Below, piece after piece: positions 2,283 through 10,773 of a DNA stretch of 64,000 nt (positions within the stretch are counted from its first letter, which is position 1; each line of letters begins with the position of its first letter). Below the pieces are notes generated by a model. That model was given only the letters and a program-made list of their open reading frames with translations, was not told the origin of the DNA and ran no database searches. Both the position numbers and the translations under genes were made by a program. This stretch comes from Streptomyces sp. GKU 895 (GTDB taxonomy: Bacteria; Actinomycetota; Actinomycetes; Streptomycetales; Streptomycetaceae), in NCBI GenBank assembly GCA_002027195.1, contig MWJO01000006.1:1-64000 (forward strand), given 5' to 3'.

Positions 2283-4054
2283 ATGACCGCCCCAAACCTG
2301 CCCGGCGAACGACCCTCCGCCCGCGCCCTCCTGCCCGTCCCGCTGCTCACCGCCGTCCTCGCCGCGCTCGCGGTCGCCGGCGCCGTGGCCCGGGCACCGG
2401 AGTCGGTACGCCTCCCGCTCGCCCTCGGTGCCGGTGCGGGCGCGCTGCTGCTGACCGCGGCCGTCGCCGTGGCCGTCCACGCCAGGCAGCACACCCGGAT
2501 CACCCGCCGCCGCCTCGAAGCCGTCACCCTCGACGCCGGGCGGCTGCTCCAGGACCGGGCCCGGCAGAGCGCGGAGTTCGACCAGGAGCGCGTGCAGCTG
2601 ACCGAGGAACTGACCCACGAGCGGGCCCGGCACACCGCCGAACTCACCCGGGAACGCGCCCGCCTCACCGCCGAGTTGGAGGAGCAGCGGGCCCGCCTCA
2701 CCGCCGCGAACGCCCGCCTGACCGAGCGCGCCCGGCGCGCCGAGCAGGAGCGGTCCACCGCCCTGTCGGCCACCGCCAACGCGGCGGGCCGCATGCAGGC
2801 CCTGGCCACCGGCATGCTCGCCGACCTGCGCGCCATGGAGGAACGGCACGACGACGAGGACGTCCTCGCCGACCTCCTCCACCTCGACCACGCACCGCCC
2901 AGGCGGGCCGCCTCGCCGACTCCGTCGCCGTCCTCACCGGCGCCCGCTCCGGCCGCCGTTGGGCCCGCCCGATCGCCATGGAGTCGATCCTGCGCGGCGC
3001 GATGGGACGCATCAGCGGCTACCGGCGGGTGCGGGTGCACTCCGCCTGCGAGGCCGCCGTCGCCGGGCACGCCGCCGAAGGCGTGATGCACGCGCTCGCC
3101 GAACTCCTCGACAACGCAGCGAACTTCTCGCCGCCGTCCGCCGAGGTCCACGTGTACGTCGAGGAGGTCCCGGCCGGGGTCATCGTCTCCGTCGAGGACA
3201 GCGGCCTCGTCATGGGCGAGGTCCAACTCCGGCGCGCCGAACGGGCGGTGTCGGGCGACGACGCCGAACTCGGCGGCCTCACCGGCACCCGCCTCGGCCT
3301 CGCGGTCGTGGGCCGCCTGTCCCGCAAGTACGGCCTCACGGTCTCCTTCCGCCCCTCGGCCCGCGGCGGCACCGGCGTCCTGATGCTCGTCCCCCAGGAC
3401 ATCCTCGTACCGGAACAACTCGCGACCCCACCGCAGGGGGCGCTGACGCTTCCTCCGGTGGAGGGTGCGGGAGCGGGAGCGGTCAAGGAGACGGCAGCGG
3501 GTACGGCGGTACGGGCCGGCAGCACCTCGGCCGGACCGGAACCGAGCACGGAGGCGGACCCGGCGGCCCCGGACGCGCCGTCCGTCCCGGCCCCCGACCC
3601 GGTTCCCACCCACGAGTCCCCCGACCACAGCGCCGCCACCCTTCCCGACGACCTGCCCGCAGGTCGCTCCGAGGACCGCTCCGAAGGCAGCCCGGAAGGA
3701 CTCCCCGACGGACTGCCCAAGCGCCGCAGGGGTCGCGCCCTCGCCGAGGCCGAGCGGGAGCAGCGGGAACGGGTGCGCGCGCGTGCCGCCGAAGCGGCCG
3801 GGTCCAGCGGCTCCCCGCGCGCCACCGGTGTCCCGGGTTCCTCCGGTGCCGCTGGGTTCACCGGCTCCACCGGACACGCCAGGCCGGCCGACGGCGCCCC
3901 CGCCCGAGCCGTCCGCTTCAGCAGCTTCCGCCAAGCCGTGCGCAACACCCTCACCGACCAGAGCGACCCCGCGACTCCGGCGCCCGCGGAGACCCCCGAA
4001 CCGTCCACCCCGGCCCACACCCACCCCACCCCGGAAGGCGACCCCACGTCATGA
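2283..4054 (+). CDS. cvnA: CvnA: sensor-histidine-kinase-like ATPase of a conservon (one frameshift)
   Basis: Starts at ATG 2283. Two N-terminal membrane segments (about residues 14-36 and 44-68) are followed by a long charged coiled coil rich in ERARLTAEL-type heptads. Near 2893 the frame changes: inserting one C restores LDHATAQAGRLADSV and leads into a HATPase_c domain with N-box ELLDNAANFSPP, DSG and the lid GTRLGLAVVGRLSRKYGL. The C-terminal ~200 residues are Pro/Ala-rich and look disordered. No phosphoacceptor H-box is evident, as is usual for conservon A proteins, thought to act as membrane sensors for the downstream small GTPase. The stop overlaps the cvnB start in ATGA. The shift is most simply a missing base in a C run; a true null allele cannot be excluded. 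Confidence 0.9.
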
Positions 4055-4458
4055 CCGGCACGACCACCGCCGACGAGAAGCTCACCTGGCTCATCGAGGG
4101 CCTGCTGGAGCGCACCCCGGGCGCGCGGCACGCGCTCGTCCTCTCTCGGGACGGACTGAAGTTGTGCCGGACGCCGGAGCTCACCGTCGACCAGGCCGAC
4201 CAGCTCGCCGCGATCGCCGCCGGCATCCAGGCCCTGTCGCAGGGTGCGTCCGTGGAGTTCGGGGACGGCACCGGCGGCGTACGGTCGGCGATGACCGAGT
4301 TCTACGGCGGTGTCCTCTTCATCGTGGAGGCCGGTGAGGGCGCTCACCTGGCCGTCGTCACCACCGAGGACGCGGACGCCGGCCTCGTCGGGCACAACAT
4401 GAGCGAGCTCGTCGAACAGCTCGGCGCCCATCTGACCGCGCAGCCCCGGACGTCATGA
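4051..4458 (+). CDS. cvnB: CvnB: roadblock/LC7 domain protein
   Basis: A 135-aa protein of one roadblock/LC7 domain, opening with TTADEKLTWLIEGLLERTPGARHALVLSRDGL and containing the alternating beta/helix pattern ending FIVEAGEGAHLAVVTTEDADAG. In conservons this protein is the GTPase-partner (GAP/scaffold-like) subunit and binds CvnA, CvnC and CvnD at the membrane. It overlaps both neighbours by 4 bp (ATGA at 4051 and 4455), implying tight translational coupling. Length and start are standard for the family. Confidence 0.95.
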   Translation: MTGTTTADEKLTWLIEGLLERTPGARHALVLSRDGLKLCRTPELTVDQADQLAAIAAGIQALSQGASVEFGDGTGGVRSAMTEFYGGVLFIVEAGEGAHLAVVTTEDADAGLVGHNMSELVEQLGAHLTAQPRTS

Positions 4459-4802
4459 GCCGCCCCGGCAGGGACGACTCACCCGACCGTCTGTACACCC
4501 TCACCGGTGGCCGTGCGCACACCACCGCGGACAGCCCTTTCGACCTGGTGACGCTCGTGGTCGCCGAGTGCGATCCGACCCCCGGCATGCAGTCGGAGCA
4601 CGCGGCGATCCTGCGGCTGACCCAACTGCCGACGGCCGTCGTCGAGTTGGCGGCCGAGCTGAAACTGCCGGTGAGCATCACCAAGATCCTGCTCGGCGAC
4701 CTGCTCACGGCGGGCCGCGTCAGCGCCCGCCATCCCCGTAAAGCCGCCGTCCCCGATCCCGACGTCCTGGAACAGGTGCTCGTTGGACTCCGCAACCTCT
4801 GA
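4455..4802 (+). CDS. cvnC: CvnC: DUF742 protein
   Basis: A 115-aa DUF742 protein. It begins with the typical RLYTLTGGR-like segment (here DRLYTLTGGRAHTT) and ends with the helical stretch LPVSITKILLGDLLTAGRVSAR, which resembles a winged-helix half. DUF742 proteins are the third component of conservon complexes; their biochemical role is unsettled. Overlaps cvnB by ATGA and its end overlaps the likely cvnD start by about 20 bp. Confidence 0.94.
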   Translation: MSRPGRDDSPDRLYTLTGGRAHTTADSPFDLVTLVVAECDPTPGMQSEHAAILRLTQLPTAVVELAAELKLPVSITKILLGDLLTAGRVSARHPRKAAVPDPDVLEQVLVGLRNL

Positions 4803-5471
4803 GGCAGCCGTCGAGGCAGCCGCCCGCACCCCTCTGGGTGCACCGCCGACAACGGCCTCAAGATCGTCGTCGTCGGCGGTTTCGGCGTCGGCAAGACCAC
4901 CCTCGTCCGCTCGGTCAGCGAGATACGTCCCCTCAACACCGAGGAGACGATGACCCGGGCCGGTGAGCACATCGACGACATCAGCGAGGTCCGGGGGAAG
5001 TCGGCGACCACCGTCGCCTTCGACTTCGGCCGCATCACGCTCGACGCCCGCAATGTGCTGTACCTCTTCGGCGCCCCCGGTCAGGAGCGGTTCTGGTTCC
5101 TGTGGGACCGGCTGTTCTCGGGGACGCTCGGCGCGGTCGTCCTCGTCGACACCCGTCGTATCGACGACAGTTGGTACGCCATCGACCGGCTCGAGCACCA
5201 CGGCACGCCGTTCGTCGTGGCCTGCAACGACTTCGGCGGCCCGGCCTACGCCCCGGGGCAGATCCGCGACGCCCTCGACCTCGATCCGCAGGTCCCGCTG
5301 CTCGACTGCGACGCCCGCTCCCGGGCCTCGGGCAAGCAGGTCCTGATCACGCTGGTGGAGCACGTCCGGAACACGTACGCCGCCCAAGGCCCCGGCAAGA
5401 CGCAGAACGTACGCGAACAGGACGCGTACGCCACCCAAGCCCCCGTATCCGAACAGGAGTTGACGCGGTGA
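4783..5471 (+). CDS. cvnD: CvnD: small Ras-like GTPase of the conservon (one frameshift near start)
   Basis: The body has P-loop GGFGVGKTT, switch-2 FGAPGQERFWFLW in place of the usual DxxGQ, and ACNDFGG where NKxD is expected, the degenerate pattern known for conservon D (ATP/GTP-binding) proteins. The natural start is TTG 4783, inside cvnC, giving LDSATSEAAVEAAARTPLGAPP. That frame meets the GTPase frame only if one C is restored in the CCGCC run at about 4846 (giving PPDNGLKIVVVGG). The first in-frame ATG at 4950 would remove the P-loop and cannot be the real start. The stop overlaps the next gene's GTG start. The protein is expected to be membrane-associated through CvnA. Confidence 0.88.
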
Positions 5472-6673
5472 CCGCCCCCATACCCCTCAGCGGCCCCAGG
5501 TTCCAGACCGAACCGGCGCGGCTGTATCGGGAGATGCGGCGCGACCACGGTGCCGTCACGCCGGTCGTGCTCGACGGCGACATCCCGGCCTGGCTGGTGC
5601 TCGGCTACCGCGAGCTGCACCAGGTCACCGGCGATCCGGTGCTGTTCAGCCGGGACTCCGAGCTGTGGAACCAGTGGGACCGCATCCCCGACGACTGGCC
5701 GCTGCTGCCGATGATCGGCCGCAAGCAGCCGTCGATCCTCTACACGGTCGGCGAACGGCACCGCGAGCGGGCGGCGATGATCAGCGAGGCGCTGGAGGCG
5801 GTGAGCCCCTCCGAACTGCGGGCCTACGCCGAGAAGTTCGCCGACGAGCTGATCGACGCGGTGTGCGCCGAGGGCGAGACGGACATCGTCGGCAACTACG
5901 CGATGCTGCTGCCGGTCCGGGTCCTGGCCCGGCTGTACGGCTTCTCCGACGAGCAGGGTCCGGGCCTGGTCACCGCCCTCAACGACATGATCGACGGGCG
6001 GGAGCGGGCCCTCGCGGGCCAGACGCACCTCGCCGGCTCCATGTTCCGGCTCCTCGCCGACCGGCGTGCCGCACCGGCCGACGACGTGGTCTCGCGAATG
6101 CTCGCCCACCGCGGCGGGTTCACGGACGAGGAGATCGCCCAGGACCTGATGGTCATGATGGCGGCGGGCCACCAGCCGACCGCCGACTGGATCGGCAACT
6201 CGCTGCGGCTGATGCTGACCGACGAACGGTTCGCGGCCTCCCTGTTCGGCGGCCGCAACAGTGTCGCCGACGCCATGAACGAGGTCCTGTGGGAGGACAC
6301 GCCGACCCAGAACGTCGCCGGGCGGTGGGCGTCCCGCGACACCCAGCTCGGCGGGCGCCGGGTCCGCGCCGGCGACCTGCTGCTGCTCGGCCTCCAGGGC
6401 GCCAACTCCGACCCGCAGGTCCGCACCGACGGCTCCACGCTCACCGGCGGCAACAGCGCCCACTTCTCCTTCGGACACGGCGAGCACCGGTGCCCGTTCC
6501 CCGCGCAGGAGATCGCCGAGGTCATCGCGCGCACCGGCATCGAGGTCGTCCTGGACCGCCTGCCCGACATCGACCTCGCGGTCCCCGCCGACTCCCTGAC
6601 CCGCCGCCCCTCCCCGTGGCTGCGCGGCCTGACCGCCCTACCGGTCCGCTTCACACCGGTGCCGACCCACTGA
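5468..6673 (+). CDS. cvnE: Cytochrome P450, CYP157-like, conservon-linked; ExxR motif missing
   Basis: A 401-aa soluble P450 starting at GTG 5468 (GTGA overlap with cvnD). The heme-binding loop FGHGEHRC is present with Cys342. Two residues normally invariant or nearly so are changed: the K-helix ExxR reads EVLW (E272-W275), and the I-helix motif reads AGHQPT (Q236) where the neighbouring P450 has AGHETT. Loss of the ExxR arginine is the published hallmark of the CYP157 family, which sits in conservons of Streptomyces. It may therefore be a heme-binding regulator or a P450 with unusual chemistry; that is inference. The frame is intact over the whole length, so these changes are not sequencing artefacts of the type seen nearby. 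Confidence 0.93.
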   Translation: MTAPIPLSGPRFQTEPARLYREMRRDHGAVTPVVLDGDIPAWLVLGYRELHQVTGDPVLFSRDSELWNQWDRIPDDWPLLPMIGRKQPSILYTVGERHRERAAMISEALEAVSPSELRAYAEKFADELIDAVCAEGETDIVGNYAMLLPVRVLARLYGFSDEQGPGLVTALNDMIDGRERALAGQTHLAGSMFRLLADRRAAPADDVVSRMLAHRGGFTDEEIAQDLMVMMAAGHQPTADWIGNSLRLMLTDERFAASLFGGRNSVADAMNEVLWEDTPTQNVAGRWASRDTQLGGRRVRAGDLLLLGLQGANSDPQVRTDGSTLTGGNSAHFSFGHGEHRCPFPAQEIAEVIARTGIEVVLDRLPDIDLAVPADSLTRRPSPWLRGLTALPVRFTPVPTH

Positions 6674-6744
6674 GCCCACGCCGGTACCGGTCCGCTTCCC
6701 GCCTGTGCCCGCGCTCTGCCATCTACGTCCTCTTGGAGACCCCC

Positions 6745-7963
6745 ATGACCACTGACCTGGAACAGACGCGCATAGCCCTCGACCCGTTCGTCACCGACCT
6801 GGACGGCGAGAGCGCGCGGCTGCGGGAGGCGGGGCCGCTGGCCGCCGTGGAGTTGCCCGGCGGGGTGCCCGTCTGGGCGGTCACGCATCACGCCGAGGCG
6901 AAGGCGCTGCTGACCGACCCGCGGCTGGTGAAGGACATCAACGTGTGGGGTGCCTGGCAGCGCGGCGAGATCCCGGCGGACTGGCCGCTGATCGGCCTGG
7001 CCAACCCGGGCCGCTCCATGCTGACCGTCGACGCGCCGACCACCGCCGGATGCGCACGCTGGTCGCGCAGGCGCTCACGCCGCGCCGGGTGGAGGAGATG
7101 CGGGAGCGGATCACGGCGCTGACCGAGAAGCTGCTCGACGATCTCGAGGGCGACACCGTCGACCTGAAGGCGGCCTTCGCCTACCCGCTTCCCATGTACG
7201 TCATCGCCGACCTCATGGGCCTGGCCGAGGAGAAGCTGCCCCGCCTGAAGGAGCTGTTCGAGAAGTTCTTCTCGACGCAGACGCCGCCGGACGAGGTCAT
7301 CGCCACGCTGATGGAGCTGGCGGGCATCATGGCGGAGACCGTGGCCGCCAAGCGCGCCGAACCCGGCGACGACCTCACCTCGGCCCTCATCCAGGCCTCC
7401 GAGAACGGCGACCACCTCACCGACGAGGAGATCGTCTCCACGCTCCAGCTGATGGTCGCGGCGGGCCACGAGACGACGATCTCCCTCATCGTCAACGCGG
7501 TGGTCCAGCTGTCACTCCACCCGGTCCAGCGCGCCCTGGTCCTGGCGGGCGAGGTCGACTGGTCCTCCGTCGTCGAGGAGACGCTGCGCCACTCCACTCC
7601 CACCTCCCACGTCCTGATCCGCTTCGCGACGGAGGACGTCCAGGTCGGCGACAAGGTCCTCCCGGCGGGCGACGCGCTGATCGTGTCGTACGCGCGATCG
7701 GCCGCGACGAGCGGGCCCACGGCCCCACGGCGGGCGAGTTCGACATCACCCGCACCTCCCCCAACCGCCACATCAGCTTCGGCCACGGCCCTCACGTCTG
7801 CCCCGGCGCCGCCCTCTCCCGCCTGGAAGCGGGCGTGGCCCTCCCGGCCCTCTACGACCGCTTCCCGGACCTCGACCTGGCAGTCCCGGCGACAGAACTC
7901 CGCAACAAGCCGGTGGTGACACAGAACGACCTGTTCGAACTGCCGGTACGGCTGACCTCGTAG
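6745..7963 (+). CDS. cvnF: Cytochrome P450, CYP154-like (two frameshifts)
   Basis: Starts at ATG 6745 and ends at TAG 7961-7963, about 406 aa when repaired. Unlike its neighbour it has all classical motifs: I-helix AAGHETT, K-helix EETLR, and heme loop FGHGPHVCPGAALSR. The frame breaks twice: near 7038 (one G missing; restoring it gives DAPDHRRMRTLVAQ) and near 7690 (one G missing; restoring it gives VSYGAIGRDERAHG). Both are single-base losses in G/C runs, so I read the gene as intact. A conservon carrying a CYP157 followed by a CYP154-type P450 is a known Streptomyces arrangement. Substrate unknown. The gene ends the operon ahead of a strong hairpin. Confidence 0.88.
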
Positions 7964-7972
7964 ACCCGCTCC

Positions 7973-8008
7973 GACGGCCGTACGGGACGTCTCAGCCGTA
8001 CGGCCGTC
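7973..8008. terminator. Bidirectional terminator hairpin between P450 and kinase genes
   Basis: A perfect 13-bp inverted repeat, GACGGCCGTACGG / CCGTACGGCCGTC, with a 10-nt loop between two convergent genes. Its right arm touches the kinase stop codon. There is no U-tract, which is usual for Streptomyces terminators. Confidence 0.75.
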
Positions 8009-9509
8009 AGGCAGGCCGGTACCACAGGAAGGCGGAGGTCACGCCGGCACCGGCCGCCGACAGTCCCAGCCCGCTCAACAGGGCCGTCCACCAGACGAGG
8101 TCGTAGTGCACGGCGAAGGCGGCGGCGCCGATGACGCCCAGCAGGCCCGCGCTCAGCAGCACCAGCACGCCTCCTGCATCGCTCAGCCCCATCTCCTCGC
8201 CGCCCGTGTAGACGAAGGCCAGCAGCACGACGATCCCCACGCTGAGGCCGAGGCCGATGAGGAAGTCGTAGTACCAGGGGAAGTCGCCTCTCGCGGCGAC
8301 GAGCCACACGCAGCCGATCAGCAGCCCGAACCAGCCCAGACAGGACAGGCAGCTGACGCCGCCCTCTCCCATCGCCTCGCCCGTTCCGTAGCCGGCCGCC
8401 ACACCGACAAGGAAGAGGACCGTGGCGGCCACCGCCGAGCACACCACCGAGGTCACCGCACCGGCTCCGCCTCCTCCGAACAGCAGGCCGAACATGCCGA
8501 GGCCTGAGATCAGACCGGCACCGGCCGACTCGGGCCAGCTGTGCCGCCGCCAGCCGTCCGGCTCAGCGGGCTGCTGCACCGGGGGCGGAGGAGGGGCCGG
8601 GGCCGGTGCCTGCTTCCCGGGCCCCGTCGGCTTCTCGTGGCCCGGCGGTGCCCCCGTCCGGAACTCCTGCCGTACCCGCCGCTCGTCAACCCCTTCCAGC
8701 CGCTTCAACACCGCGGCGATGCCCGGCCGCTTGTCGACCCGCTTCTCCAGCAGGTCCATGACGAGGTCGTCCAACTGGTCAGGTATGTCTGCGCGGCGGC
8801 CCTGCGGTGCGAGTGGTGTCTCCGACTGGTGGCGCCGCATCATGTCGGGCCCCAGGAACGGCGGCCGCCCCGTCAACATGGCGTAGAGCACGCAACCGAG
8901 CGAATACAGGTCGGAGGCGACGCCCACGCCTTCGCCGCGGCACTGCTCCGGAGACATGTAGGCGGGGGTGCCCACGACGGCGCCCCGCTCGGTGATCTGG
9001 GTGACGCCGGTCTGATCCTCCTGGAAGCACGCGATCCCGAAGTCGAGGATCATCGCGTGGCCTTCATGGGTGATCTGGATGTTGGAAGGTTTGAGGTCAC
9101 GGTGGATCAGGCCCGCGTTGTGCGCCGCCTTCAGCCCCTGGCAGATCTCAGCGCCCCAGGCGACCACCTTCTTCACGGACAGCCGATGGCCGGGGGCCCG
9201 CTCGATGCGTTCCTCGAGTGACATGCCGTCGAGCAGTTGCATGACGAGGAACATGACGGCCCGGCCGTCCCGCTCGCCCCACCCGCGGTCGTAGGCATGG
9301 ACCACGTTCGTCCCCGCCAGCCGACCGGCGAGGTCCAGCTCCCGCTCGAACCGCCGCAGCATGTCCCGGTCGCCGAGGTGCCGCTCATGCATCAGCTTGA
9401 TGGCGACCTCGCGGCCCATCACATGATCACGCGCTCGCCAGACCTGCCCGAACCCACCGTTTCCGAGCCGCCACAGCAACTCGTACCGGCCCCCCTCGAG
9501 TCCGCTCAC
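8007..9509 (-). CDS. Transmembrane serine/threonine protein kinase
   Basis: 500 aa. The N-terminal ~265 residues are a complete Hanks kinase: glycine loop LGNGGFGQV (15-23), ATP lysine K38, catalytic HRDLKPSN with D138, DFG with D156, APE-equivalent SPEQ. A Pro/Ala linker (about 300-325) follows, then about five hydrophobic segments to the C terminus. There are no PASTA repeats or other extracellular sensor domain, so the membrane bundle itself, or a partner, would carry the input signal. It stands alone between a terminator and the divergent serC gene. Confidence 0.94.
   Translation of the reverse strand: MSGLEGGRYELLWRLGNGGFGQVWRARDHVMGREVAIKLMHERHLGDRDMLRRFERELDLAGRLAGTNVVHAYDRGWGERDGRAVMFLVMQLLDGMSLEERIERAPGHRLSVKKVVAWGAEICQGLKAAHNAGLIHRDLKPSNIQITHEGHAMILDFGIACFQEDQTGVTQITERGAVVGTPAYMSPEQCRGEGVGVASDLYSLGCVLYAMLTGRPPFLGPDMMRRHQSETPLAPQGRRADIPDQLDDLVMDLLEKRVDKRPGIAAVLKRLEGVDERRVRQEFRTGAPPGHEKPTGPGKQAPAPAPPPPPVQQPAEPDGWRRHSWPESAGAGLISGLGMFGLLFGGGGAGAVTSVVCSAVAATVLFLVGVAAGYGTGEAMGEGGVSCLSCLGWFGLLIGCVWLVAARGDFPWYYDFLIGLGLSVGIVVLLAFVYTGGEEMGLSDAGGVLVLLSAGLLGVIGAAAFAVHYDLVWWTALLSGLGLSAAGAGVTSAFLWYRPA

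Positions 9510-9525: not shown

Positions 9526-10773
<1,248 letters not shown>

What the first reader, a model, noticed from the sequence alone, without database searches (positions are those of the whole stretch)
5468..6673. P450 lacking the ExxR motif and the I-helix acid inside a conservon
The K-helix reads EVLW (272-275) and the I-helix AGHQPT (Q236) while the heme loop with Cys342 is intact. Loss of the ExxR arginine is described for the CYP157 family; here the acid/alcohol pair of the I helix is also changed (Q for E). The frame is whole, so this is not an indel artefact. It sits between the conservon GTPase and a fully canonical CYP154-like P450. The combination suggests a redox or ligand sensor, or a P450 partner subunit, instead of a monooxygenase.
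Basis: partly seen in the sequence, partly recalled or inferred. Interest (0 to 1): 0.72.

Follow-up and report, generated by a model that had tools for sequence, protein, structure and literature searches.

The report
Likely P450-derived sensor in bacterial signalling
This Streptomyces gene codes for a protein built like a P450 enzyme that has lost the usual catalytic motifs but keeps the heme-binding cysteine; it belongs to the already described CYP157A type, sits in a GTPase signalling operon beside a normal P450 gene, and likely works as a sensor part of that signalling switch instead of as an enzyme.

Summary
In detail: the intact frame at 5468-6673 reads EVLW where ExxR belongs and AGHQPT in the I helix. 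It is not new. The same three motifs (GHQPT, EVLW, FSFGHGEHRCPFPA) are printed for a CYP157A P450 in a 2013 table. Two corrections: the I-helix alcohol is lost too (T to P237), and the heme loop keeps Cys342 but not the CxG glycine.

What the survey adds is a rule. In four genomes searched without regard to motif, 11 of 39 conservons carry a P450. The first P450 after cvnD lacks the ExxR arginine in 11 of 11. A neighbouring P450, where present (6), keeps ExxR in 6 of 6. In one tree the 41 non-ExxR rows form one side of a branch against 35 ExxR rows, and include proteins only 33-41% identical to this one. Among 204 distinct non-ExxR sequences Cys is kept in 204 and Trp found in 202. In 88 of 89 loci the P450 start overlaps the cvnD stop by 4 bases.

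Likely reading (inferred): a heme-thiolate pseudo-P450 that senses a small molecule for the sensor-less kinase CvnA, with the canonical neighbour acting on the same molecule. A partner-subunit role or unusual catalysis is not excluded.

The parts
2283..4054 (+). cvnA, histidine-kinase-like protein; two hydrophobic segments about 5 residues apart, HATPase_c; frame changes near 2890-2910
4051..4458 (+). cvnB, Roadblock/LC7 protein
   Evidence: Pfam PF03259, 83.9 bits
4455..4802 (+). cvnC, DUF742 protein
   Evidence: Pfam PF05331, 118.5 bits
4783..5471 (+). cvnD, conservon GTPase; frame changes near 4840 by comparison with L021; start at 4783 read by eye
   Evidence: sequence reading; Pfam PF03029, 77.1 bits, on 4950-5468
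5468..6673 (+). CYP157A-type CvnE: P450 fold without ExxR, I-helix acid/alcohol pair or CxG glycine; Cys342 kept; GTG start overlaps the cvnD stop by 4 bases
6164..6184 (+). I-helix motif AGHQPTA (codons 233-239)
6281..6292 (+). K-helix EVLW (codons 272-275) in place of ExxR
6491..6508 (+). Cys342 and altered heme loop CPFPAQ (codons 342-347)
6745..7963 (+). CYP154C-type canonical P450 (AGHETT, EETLR, HVCPG) in three frame pieces in this assembly

Best explanation
The protein is a CYP157A-type CvnE, a P450 fold that has lost the ExxR arginine, the I-helix acid and alcohol and the CxG glycine but keeps its cysteine, and it is likely a heme-containing sensor subunit predicted to bind a small molecule and to switch the sensor-less conservon kinase CvnA. 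Shown here: the motif losses, their fixation under constraint, the 4-base overlap with cvnD, the position next to a canonical P450, and a CvnA in which no sensory domain was found. Inferred: heme is bound through Cys342 with His98, Arg286 and His340 around it; O2 activation is lost; the protein contacts CvnA and/or CvnD; the neighbouring CYP154 makes or removes the ligand; the signal then passes to the GTPase CvnD.
For: Motifs: in 56 close orthologues W275, C342, R286 and P237 are 56 of 56 and Q236 54 of 56. In 50 orthologues with both P450s the K helix (majority fraction 0.970) and I helix (0.942) are the two best conserved of nine regions of the 157 protein (mean 0.863), and these two and the heme loop (0.909) are more conserved than in the active neighbour (0.808, 0.873, 0.858). 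dN/dS is 0.186 against 0.165 for CYP154, so this is not decay. Coupling: an in-frame start overlaps the cvnD stop by 4 bases in 88 of 89 loci. Sensor-less kinase: Pfam finds only HATPase_c above cut-off in CvnA (window C-terminal part; two near relatives whole), and the two hydrophobic segments of the window's CvnA lie about 5 residues apart. A 2026 paper reports that CvnE and CvnF go overwhelmingly with CvnA proteins lacking sensory domains, that the GAF accessory CvnF8 binds CvnA8 and stimulates its autophosphorylation, and that AlphaFold2 places CvnE11 on the HATPase domains of CvnA11 (PMC13343842, passages). Rule: the first P450 after cvnD is non-ExxR in 11 of 11 conservons of four genomes, in both P450-bearing ones of the window genome, and in 11 of 11 loci (six of these I had already met through the window protein). 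Sensor plus enzyme: a P450 lies within 500 bp of 6 of 11 conservon P450s against 4 of 82 other P450s (Fisher P 1e-4). The neighbours come from more than one P450 lineage; their label needs at least 5 changes on well-supported branches.
Against: No binding, spectrum or phenotype was measured here, and heme content is inferred from residues. In one clade (C) 19 of 23 loci have the 157 + 154 pair with no conservon gene found within 5.6 kb upstream, so the conservon is not always linked. Distance matrices tie 157 more closely to CYP154 (partial r 0.46) than to CvnD (0.25) or CvnA (0.19), which favours the partner-subunit rival. His340 is Tyr or Phe in 26 of 118, and Arg286 is replaced in 14 of 204 distinct non-ExxR sequences. 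In the B-C loop, C helix, K-beta segment, L helix and C-terminal loop the neighbour is as well or better conserved. The AlphaFold2 model was poor (mean pLDDT 52) and gives no support.
Confidence: 0.5

Rival explanations
1. The protein is likely a non-catalytic partner subunit of the neighbouring canonical P450: it would form a hetero-P450 complex that stabilises, delivers substrate to or regulates the CYP154, as EryCII does for the glycosyltransferase EryCIII.
For: The 157 + 154 pair persists without a linked conservon in 19 of 23 clade C loci. The partial correlation of distance matrices is highest with CYP154 and exceeds CvnA in 293 and CvnD in 294 of 300 resamplings. EryCII is a P450 homologue that activates a partner protein (PMC3391682, passages); NCBIfam TIGR04515 (P450-derived glycosyltransferase activator) is a match far below its cut-off (79.1 bits, cut-off 343).
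Against: No P450 on either strand follows in 6 of 56 close orthologues that keep conservon and CvnE, nor in L082 of clade C: at least two losses, the six being unresolved among themselves in the tree. In clade D the neighbour is a different canonical P450 on the opposite strand (20 of 22), and in groups E and F no canonical P450 lies directly beside it (0 of 12; L135 and L137 have one on the far side). EryCII has lost the heme cysteine; here Cys is kept in 204 of 204 distinct sequences.
Confidence: 0.22
2. It is still an enzyme, with chemistry that would need neither the ExxR arginine nor the acid/alcohol pair, such as an isomerase, dehydratase or peroxide-driven reaction.
For: Cys and most heme-contact residues are kept. 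Some P450 reactions need no O2 activation; the cyclization of a dipentaenone by CYP154A1 is listed in PMC7369989 (table passage), its redox-free nature being recalled. Five CYP157C-like loci still have ETT and CPG.
Against: Acid, alcohol, CxG glycine and C-helix Arg are all missing together in 95 of 118 and in 50 of 86 further distinct non-ExxR sequences, whereas all four are present in 132 of 138 distinct ExxR sequences. C-helix conservation is lower than in CYP154 (0.831 against 0.931), as expected if ferredoxin docking no longer matters (inference).
Confidence: 0.2
3. It is a decaying pseudogene or a sequencing artefact.
For: Other genes of the same operon change frame in this assembly.
Against: The frame is open, W275 and P237 occur in all 56 close orthologues, and dN/dS is 0.186.
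Confidence: 0.01

Closest known systems
CYP157A P450s (Svu023 of Streptomyces virginiae IBL14; CYP157A2 of S. avermitilis)
   Same: GHQPT, EVLW and FSFGHGEHRCPFPA are identical to Svu023 as printed in Table 2 of PMC3599690. That paper gives EVLW for CYP157A2 and EQSLW for CYP157C1 and C2, and says that CYP157 genes are linked to upstream conservons.
   Different: Nothing in the three printed motifs. No named CYP157 sequence was in hand for an identity test.
CvnE, the cytochrome P450 accessory protein of conservons / actinobacterial G protein systems (PMC13343842, PMC8510531)
   Same: P450 gene directly after cvnD; CvnA without a detected sensory domain.
   Different: The passages read do not mention a missing ExxR (CYP157 has 0 hits in PMC13343842). 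In the motif-blind test here the first-position P450 is non-ExxR in 11 of 11.
CYP154 family (CYP154C1, PDB 1gwi)
   Same: Best match among solved structures: 157 bits with the sequence, 223 bits with the family profile. A CYP154C-type gene is the neighbour in the operon.
   Different: The CYP154 neighbours are canonical (E, T, ExxR and CxG in 75 of 75) and the two put into the tree lie on the ExxR side.
EryCII / DesVIII (TIGR04515), P450-derived glycosyltransferase activators
   Same: P450 fold reused as a non-enzymatic partner.
   Different: They lack the heme cysteine (PMC3391682, passages); here it is invariant, and the TIGR04515 score is far below its cut-off.

Membership tests
Cytochrome P450 superfamily | P450 fold by sequence and an axial cysteine in FxxGxxxC | tested here: met
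   phmmer hits to 366 distinct PDB sequences, best CYP154C1; Cys342 aligned
Cytochrome P450 superfamily | Pfam PF00067 gathering score | tested here: not met
   16.2 bits against a cut-off of 22.8
Functional P450 monooxygenase | ExxR, I-helix acid/alcohol pair, CxG | tested here: not met
   EVLW, Q236-P237, CPF
CYP157 | K helix without the ExxR arginine (ExxW) | tested here: met
   EVLW 272-275; identical motifs printed for Svu023/157A
CYP157 | more than 40% (family) and 55% (subfamily) identity to named members | not tested
   no named CYP157 sequence obtained; the relatives listed with a source name are called 'cytochrome P450', 'cytochrome' or hypothetical protein
CYP157 | linked to a conservon | tested here: met
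   cvnA-D at 2283-5471
CvnE | P450 gene directly after cvnD, with a CvnA lacking NIT/HAMP sensor domains | tested here: met
   4-base overlap with cvnD (88 of 89 relatives); only HATPase_c above cut-off in CvnA
CvnE | physical interaction with CvnA | not testable with these tools
   no complex prediction or binding assay available
P450-derived glycosyltransferase activators (TIGR04515) | NCBIfam cut-off and loss of the heme cysteine | tested here: not met
   79.1 bits against 343; Cys342 present

The most novel reading that the evidence does not exclude
Conservon P450s of the first position (CvnE) are one old clade of heme-thiolate pseudo-P450 receptors, not just the CYP157 family: each is co-translated with the GTPase CvnD, has traded ExxR for ExxW, and works as a receptor-enzyme pair with a canonical P450, the enzyme having been swapped for P450s of different lineages while the receptor stayed.
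Probability: 0.35. Interest if true: 0.78.

Novelty: new member of a known kind. Interest (0 to 1): 0.5.

Why it matters
The missing ExxR of CYP157 was reported in 2006 (title seen in reference lists; paper not held), and the 2026 paper says that CvnE proteins have not been assessed biochemically (PMC13343842, passage). If the rule found here holds, the first P450 of a conservon is a signalling subunit by descent and the canonical P450 next door points to its ligand: give the products of that enzyme to the purified subunit and look for binding. It would also mean that surveys which count CYP157 among the P450s of secondary metabolism (PMC7369989, passages) mix receptors with enzymes. Pfam's P450 model misses this protein.

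Tried and rejected
Pseudogene or artefact: rejected. A hidden ExxR elsewhere: rejected. 'Q236 is a new feature': rejected. 'CYP157 always needs a linked conservon' and 'CYP157 always needs CYP154': both rejected by loci that lack one or the other. My first impression that clade D has no P450 partner came from looking at one strand only; the opposite strand shows a canonical P450 in 20 of 22.

AlphaFold2 with 30 sequences gave mean pLDDT 52; not used, and no fold search was run. In the PDB search with the family profile the best of the 60 rows shown is CYP154C1, so I saw no solved member of the clade. The Pfam scan of the cvnA N-terminus used the wrong frame; it was repeated in the right frame. 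CvnB in the script was translated one base off and its CvnB hits are not used; corrected. The first pool count (96 further non-ExxR and 65 further ExxR sequences) held genes fetched twice; the counts given here are those, made after removing 27 repeats. Rupasinghe et al. 2006 is not held; only its title was seen, in citing papers. Family names beyond CYP157 and CYP154 for other conservon P450s were not assigned.

Limits: the 118 loci were chosen by me from 149 listed non-own matches, mostly to avoid short contigs; 31 were dropped unseen. The 60 regions were chosen by me from the list and were found with the window protein, so they say nothing about how often the first P450 is non-ExxR. The four genomes of the motif-blind test were chosen by me from the 13 for their few contigs. 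The 60 loci are best-ranked matches of a mixed profile (6 non-ExxR and 5 ExxR rows) in 13 genomes chosen by me, and six of its 11 cvnD-adjacent P450s had been found before with the window protein. In L311 and L315 the first P450, and in L313 the second, lie in two frame pieces. The trees are of the quick kind; group A was thinned to 25 of 56 loci plus the window. Related sequences are not independent.

Full report
WHAT IS THERE. The frame 5468-6673 (+) encodes a 401-residue P450-like protein. Its best solved relative is CYP154C1 (1gwi, 157 bits). Against that protein ExxR reads EVLW (272-275), the I helix reads AGHQPT (E to Q236 and the conserved Thr to P237), Cys342 is kept, and the CxG glycine is replaced with two residues inserted (CPFPAQ against CP--GA). 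The C-helix Arg present in all 75 neighbouring CYP154s is Ala102. Pfam's P450 model scores it below its cut-off (16.2 against 22.8 bits).

SURROUNDINGS. Upstream lie cvnA (only HATPase_c above cut-off), cvnB (Roadblock), cvnC (DUF742) and cvnD. The GTG start overlaps the cvnD stop by four bases (read). Downstream lies a CYP154C-type P450 with canonical motifs. In this assembly the CYP154 gene lies in three frame pieces and cvnA in two, and cvnD changes frame near 4840 (read against L021). Four near relatives (L139, L140, L142, L143) have cvnA and the CYP154 gene in one frame each. The breaks are therefore probably sequence errors of this draft (190 contigs, completeness 84.8). The CYP157A gene is intact.

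IS IT KNOWN. Yes. Table 2 of PMC3599690 (passage) prints G-HQPT, E-VLW and F-SFGHGEHRCPFPA for Svu023, a CYP157A, and A-FETT, E-QILW and HECPG for Svu024, a CYP157C. It cites Rupasinghe 2006 for the missing ExxR and for linkage to conservons. The two CvnE papers (PMC8510531, PMC13343842; passages) treat CvnE as a P450 accessory whose role is not known and that goes with sensor-less CvnA; the second has no mention of CYP157. In the search listings and passages seen I met no statement that conservon P450s in general lack ExxR.

CENSUS IN STREPTOMYCES. Of 149 listed non-own matches in 150 genomes I fetched 118 loci. W275, C342 and R286 are 118 of 118. Position 236 is Q 86, L 21, E 6, P 4, D 1; position 237 is P 92, T 20, L 3, A 2, S 1. 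By identity: group A (69-91%, n 56) has conservon in 55 and CYP154 next in 50; B (n 5) 4 and 4; C (56-64%, n 23) conservon in 4, CYP154 in 21; D (50-54%, n 22) conservon in 22, CYP154 in 0; E (n 6) conservon in 2, CYP154 in 0; F (CYP157C-like, n 6) conservon in 6, CYP154 in 0. In D, 20 of 22 instead have a canonical P450 of another lineage (AGGETT/AETLR) downstream on the opposite strand; with L103 that makes 21, 17 of them 30-154 bases away and four 0.65-1.7 kb away. Five of the six F loci keep ETT, CPG and the C-helix Arg and have lost only the ExxR arginine. A+B+C without L103 is a clade (100/98, 93-row tree); within the 118 loci it is the only one with CYP154 next door.

CONSTRAINT. In 47 group A loci the mean pairwise distance is 0.189 for CYP157A and 0.204 for CYP154. 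Median dN/dS is 0.186 and 0.165. In 50 loci the regions that would look broken (K helix 0.970, I helix 0.942, heme loop 0.909 majority fraction) are above the protein's own mean (0.863) and above the same regions of the active CYP154. The C helix is below the mean (0.831, against 0.931 in CYP154). The B-C loop, K-beta segment, L helix and C-terminal loop are as well or better conserved in CYP154. The changed motifs look like selected features, not decay.

A TEST THAT DOES NOT ASK FOR THE MOTIF. In four genomes, chosen for few contigs from 13, I listed all DUF742 hits (39) and all P450s found with a mixed profile at E 1e-10 (102 hits). Eleven conservons have a same-strand P450 within 5 kb. All 11 first P450s lack the Arg (10 W, 1 H); the same-strand second P450s (4) and the opposite-strand neighbours (2) are all ExxR. 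In the window genome, which has 10 DUF742 hits, two conservons have a P450 right behind, both W: the window and contig C189 (EQSLW). Eleven distinct cvnD-adjacent P450s among 60 loci from 13 genomes are all W; six of them were already known to me from the window-protein search. Exceptions to W among non-ExxR proteins are K in L223 and L234 and H in L311. Exceptions to 'second is ExxR': five loci found with the window protein (L225, L229, L246, L264, L273) have two non-ExxR P450s in tandem.

ONE CLADE, MORE THAN ONE PARTNER LINEAGE. After removing repeats the pool holds 204 distinct non-ExxR sequences (202 W, 2 K; Cys in 204) and 138 distinct ExxR sequences. In a tree of 76 P450s the 41 non-ExxR rows (two of them identical) lie on one side of a branch with SH-aLRT 100; the tree is of the quick kind and unrooted. 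First-position P450s outside the CYP157A/D-like group, in one piece, are 33-41% identical to the window protein. Neighbouring canonical P450s fall in more than one lineage; the label needs 6 changes, 5 forced by starred branches. Conservon P450s have another P450 within 500 bp in 6 of 11 cases, other P450s of the same genomes in 4 of 82 (P 1e-4).

COUPLING. In 88 of 89 loci with cvnD an in-frame ATG/GTG overlaps the cvnD stop by four bases. Partial correlations of distance matrices are highest with CYP154 (0.46, 5-95% 0.32-0.55), then CvnD (0.25) and CvnA (0.19); these are weak, related data and fit both the sensor and the partner reading.

HOW IT LIKELY WORKS (inferred). A P450 fold that holds heme by Cys342 but cannot activate O2 is well suited to bind a small molecule and report it. 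CvnA here has two membrane segments and no sensor domain that Pfam finds. The GAF accessory CvnF8 binds and stimulates CvnA8 in another conservon (PMC13343842). I propose that CvnE does the same with a P450-type pocket and that the canonical P450 acts on the same molecule as producer or remover. The pairs without a conservon and the strong tie to CYP154 keep the partner-subunit rival alive; the kept cysteine keeps unusual catalysis alive.

VERDICT. The window protein is an ordinary CYP157A. The value lies in the rule that conservon first-position P450s belong to one ExxR-less clade and often stand beside a canonical P450, which makes their function testable.

Noticed in passing
window 2283-7963: Four frame changes in a few kb (cvnA, cvnD, CYP154 twice) in an otherwise conserved operon; near relatives have cvnA and CYP154 in one frame, so probably draft errors.
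   Followed up: partly
L083, L084, L087-L094, L096, L098-L102, L104 (and L081, L085): Free-standing CYP157 + CYP154 gene pairs with no conservon gene found within 5.6 kb upstream; in the two loci looked at more closely (L083, L092) the best-conserved ORFs listed are the two P450 genes and their shadow frames.
   Followed up: partly
L103, L105, L107-L125, L222, L227, L233, L261, L267, L272, L312, L316: A canonical P450 of a separate lineage (AGGETT, AETLR/AESLR) on the opposite strand beside the conservon non-ExxR P450.
   Followed up: partly
L225, L229, L246, L264, L273: Tandem pairs of two non-ExxR P450s behind one conservon, in genomes of one other family (f18).
   Followed up: no
L064, L067: Two sister orthologues without CYP154 next door have an acid at position 236 (D, E); one event, so only suggestive.
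   Followed up: no
L223, L234: Lys instead of Trp at the ExxR arginine position, each beside a canonical P450.
   Followed up: no
window genome contig C189:30931-32109: A second conservon P450 in the same genome, K helix EQSLW (as printed for CYP157C).
   Followed up: partly
window 8007-9509 (-) and 9541-10773 (+): A Ser/Thr protein kinase gene and a serC-like aminotransferase gene, named by eye from the translations; the serC-like start also follows CvnE directly in L073 and L075, which lack CYP154.
   Followed up: no
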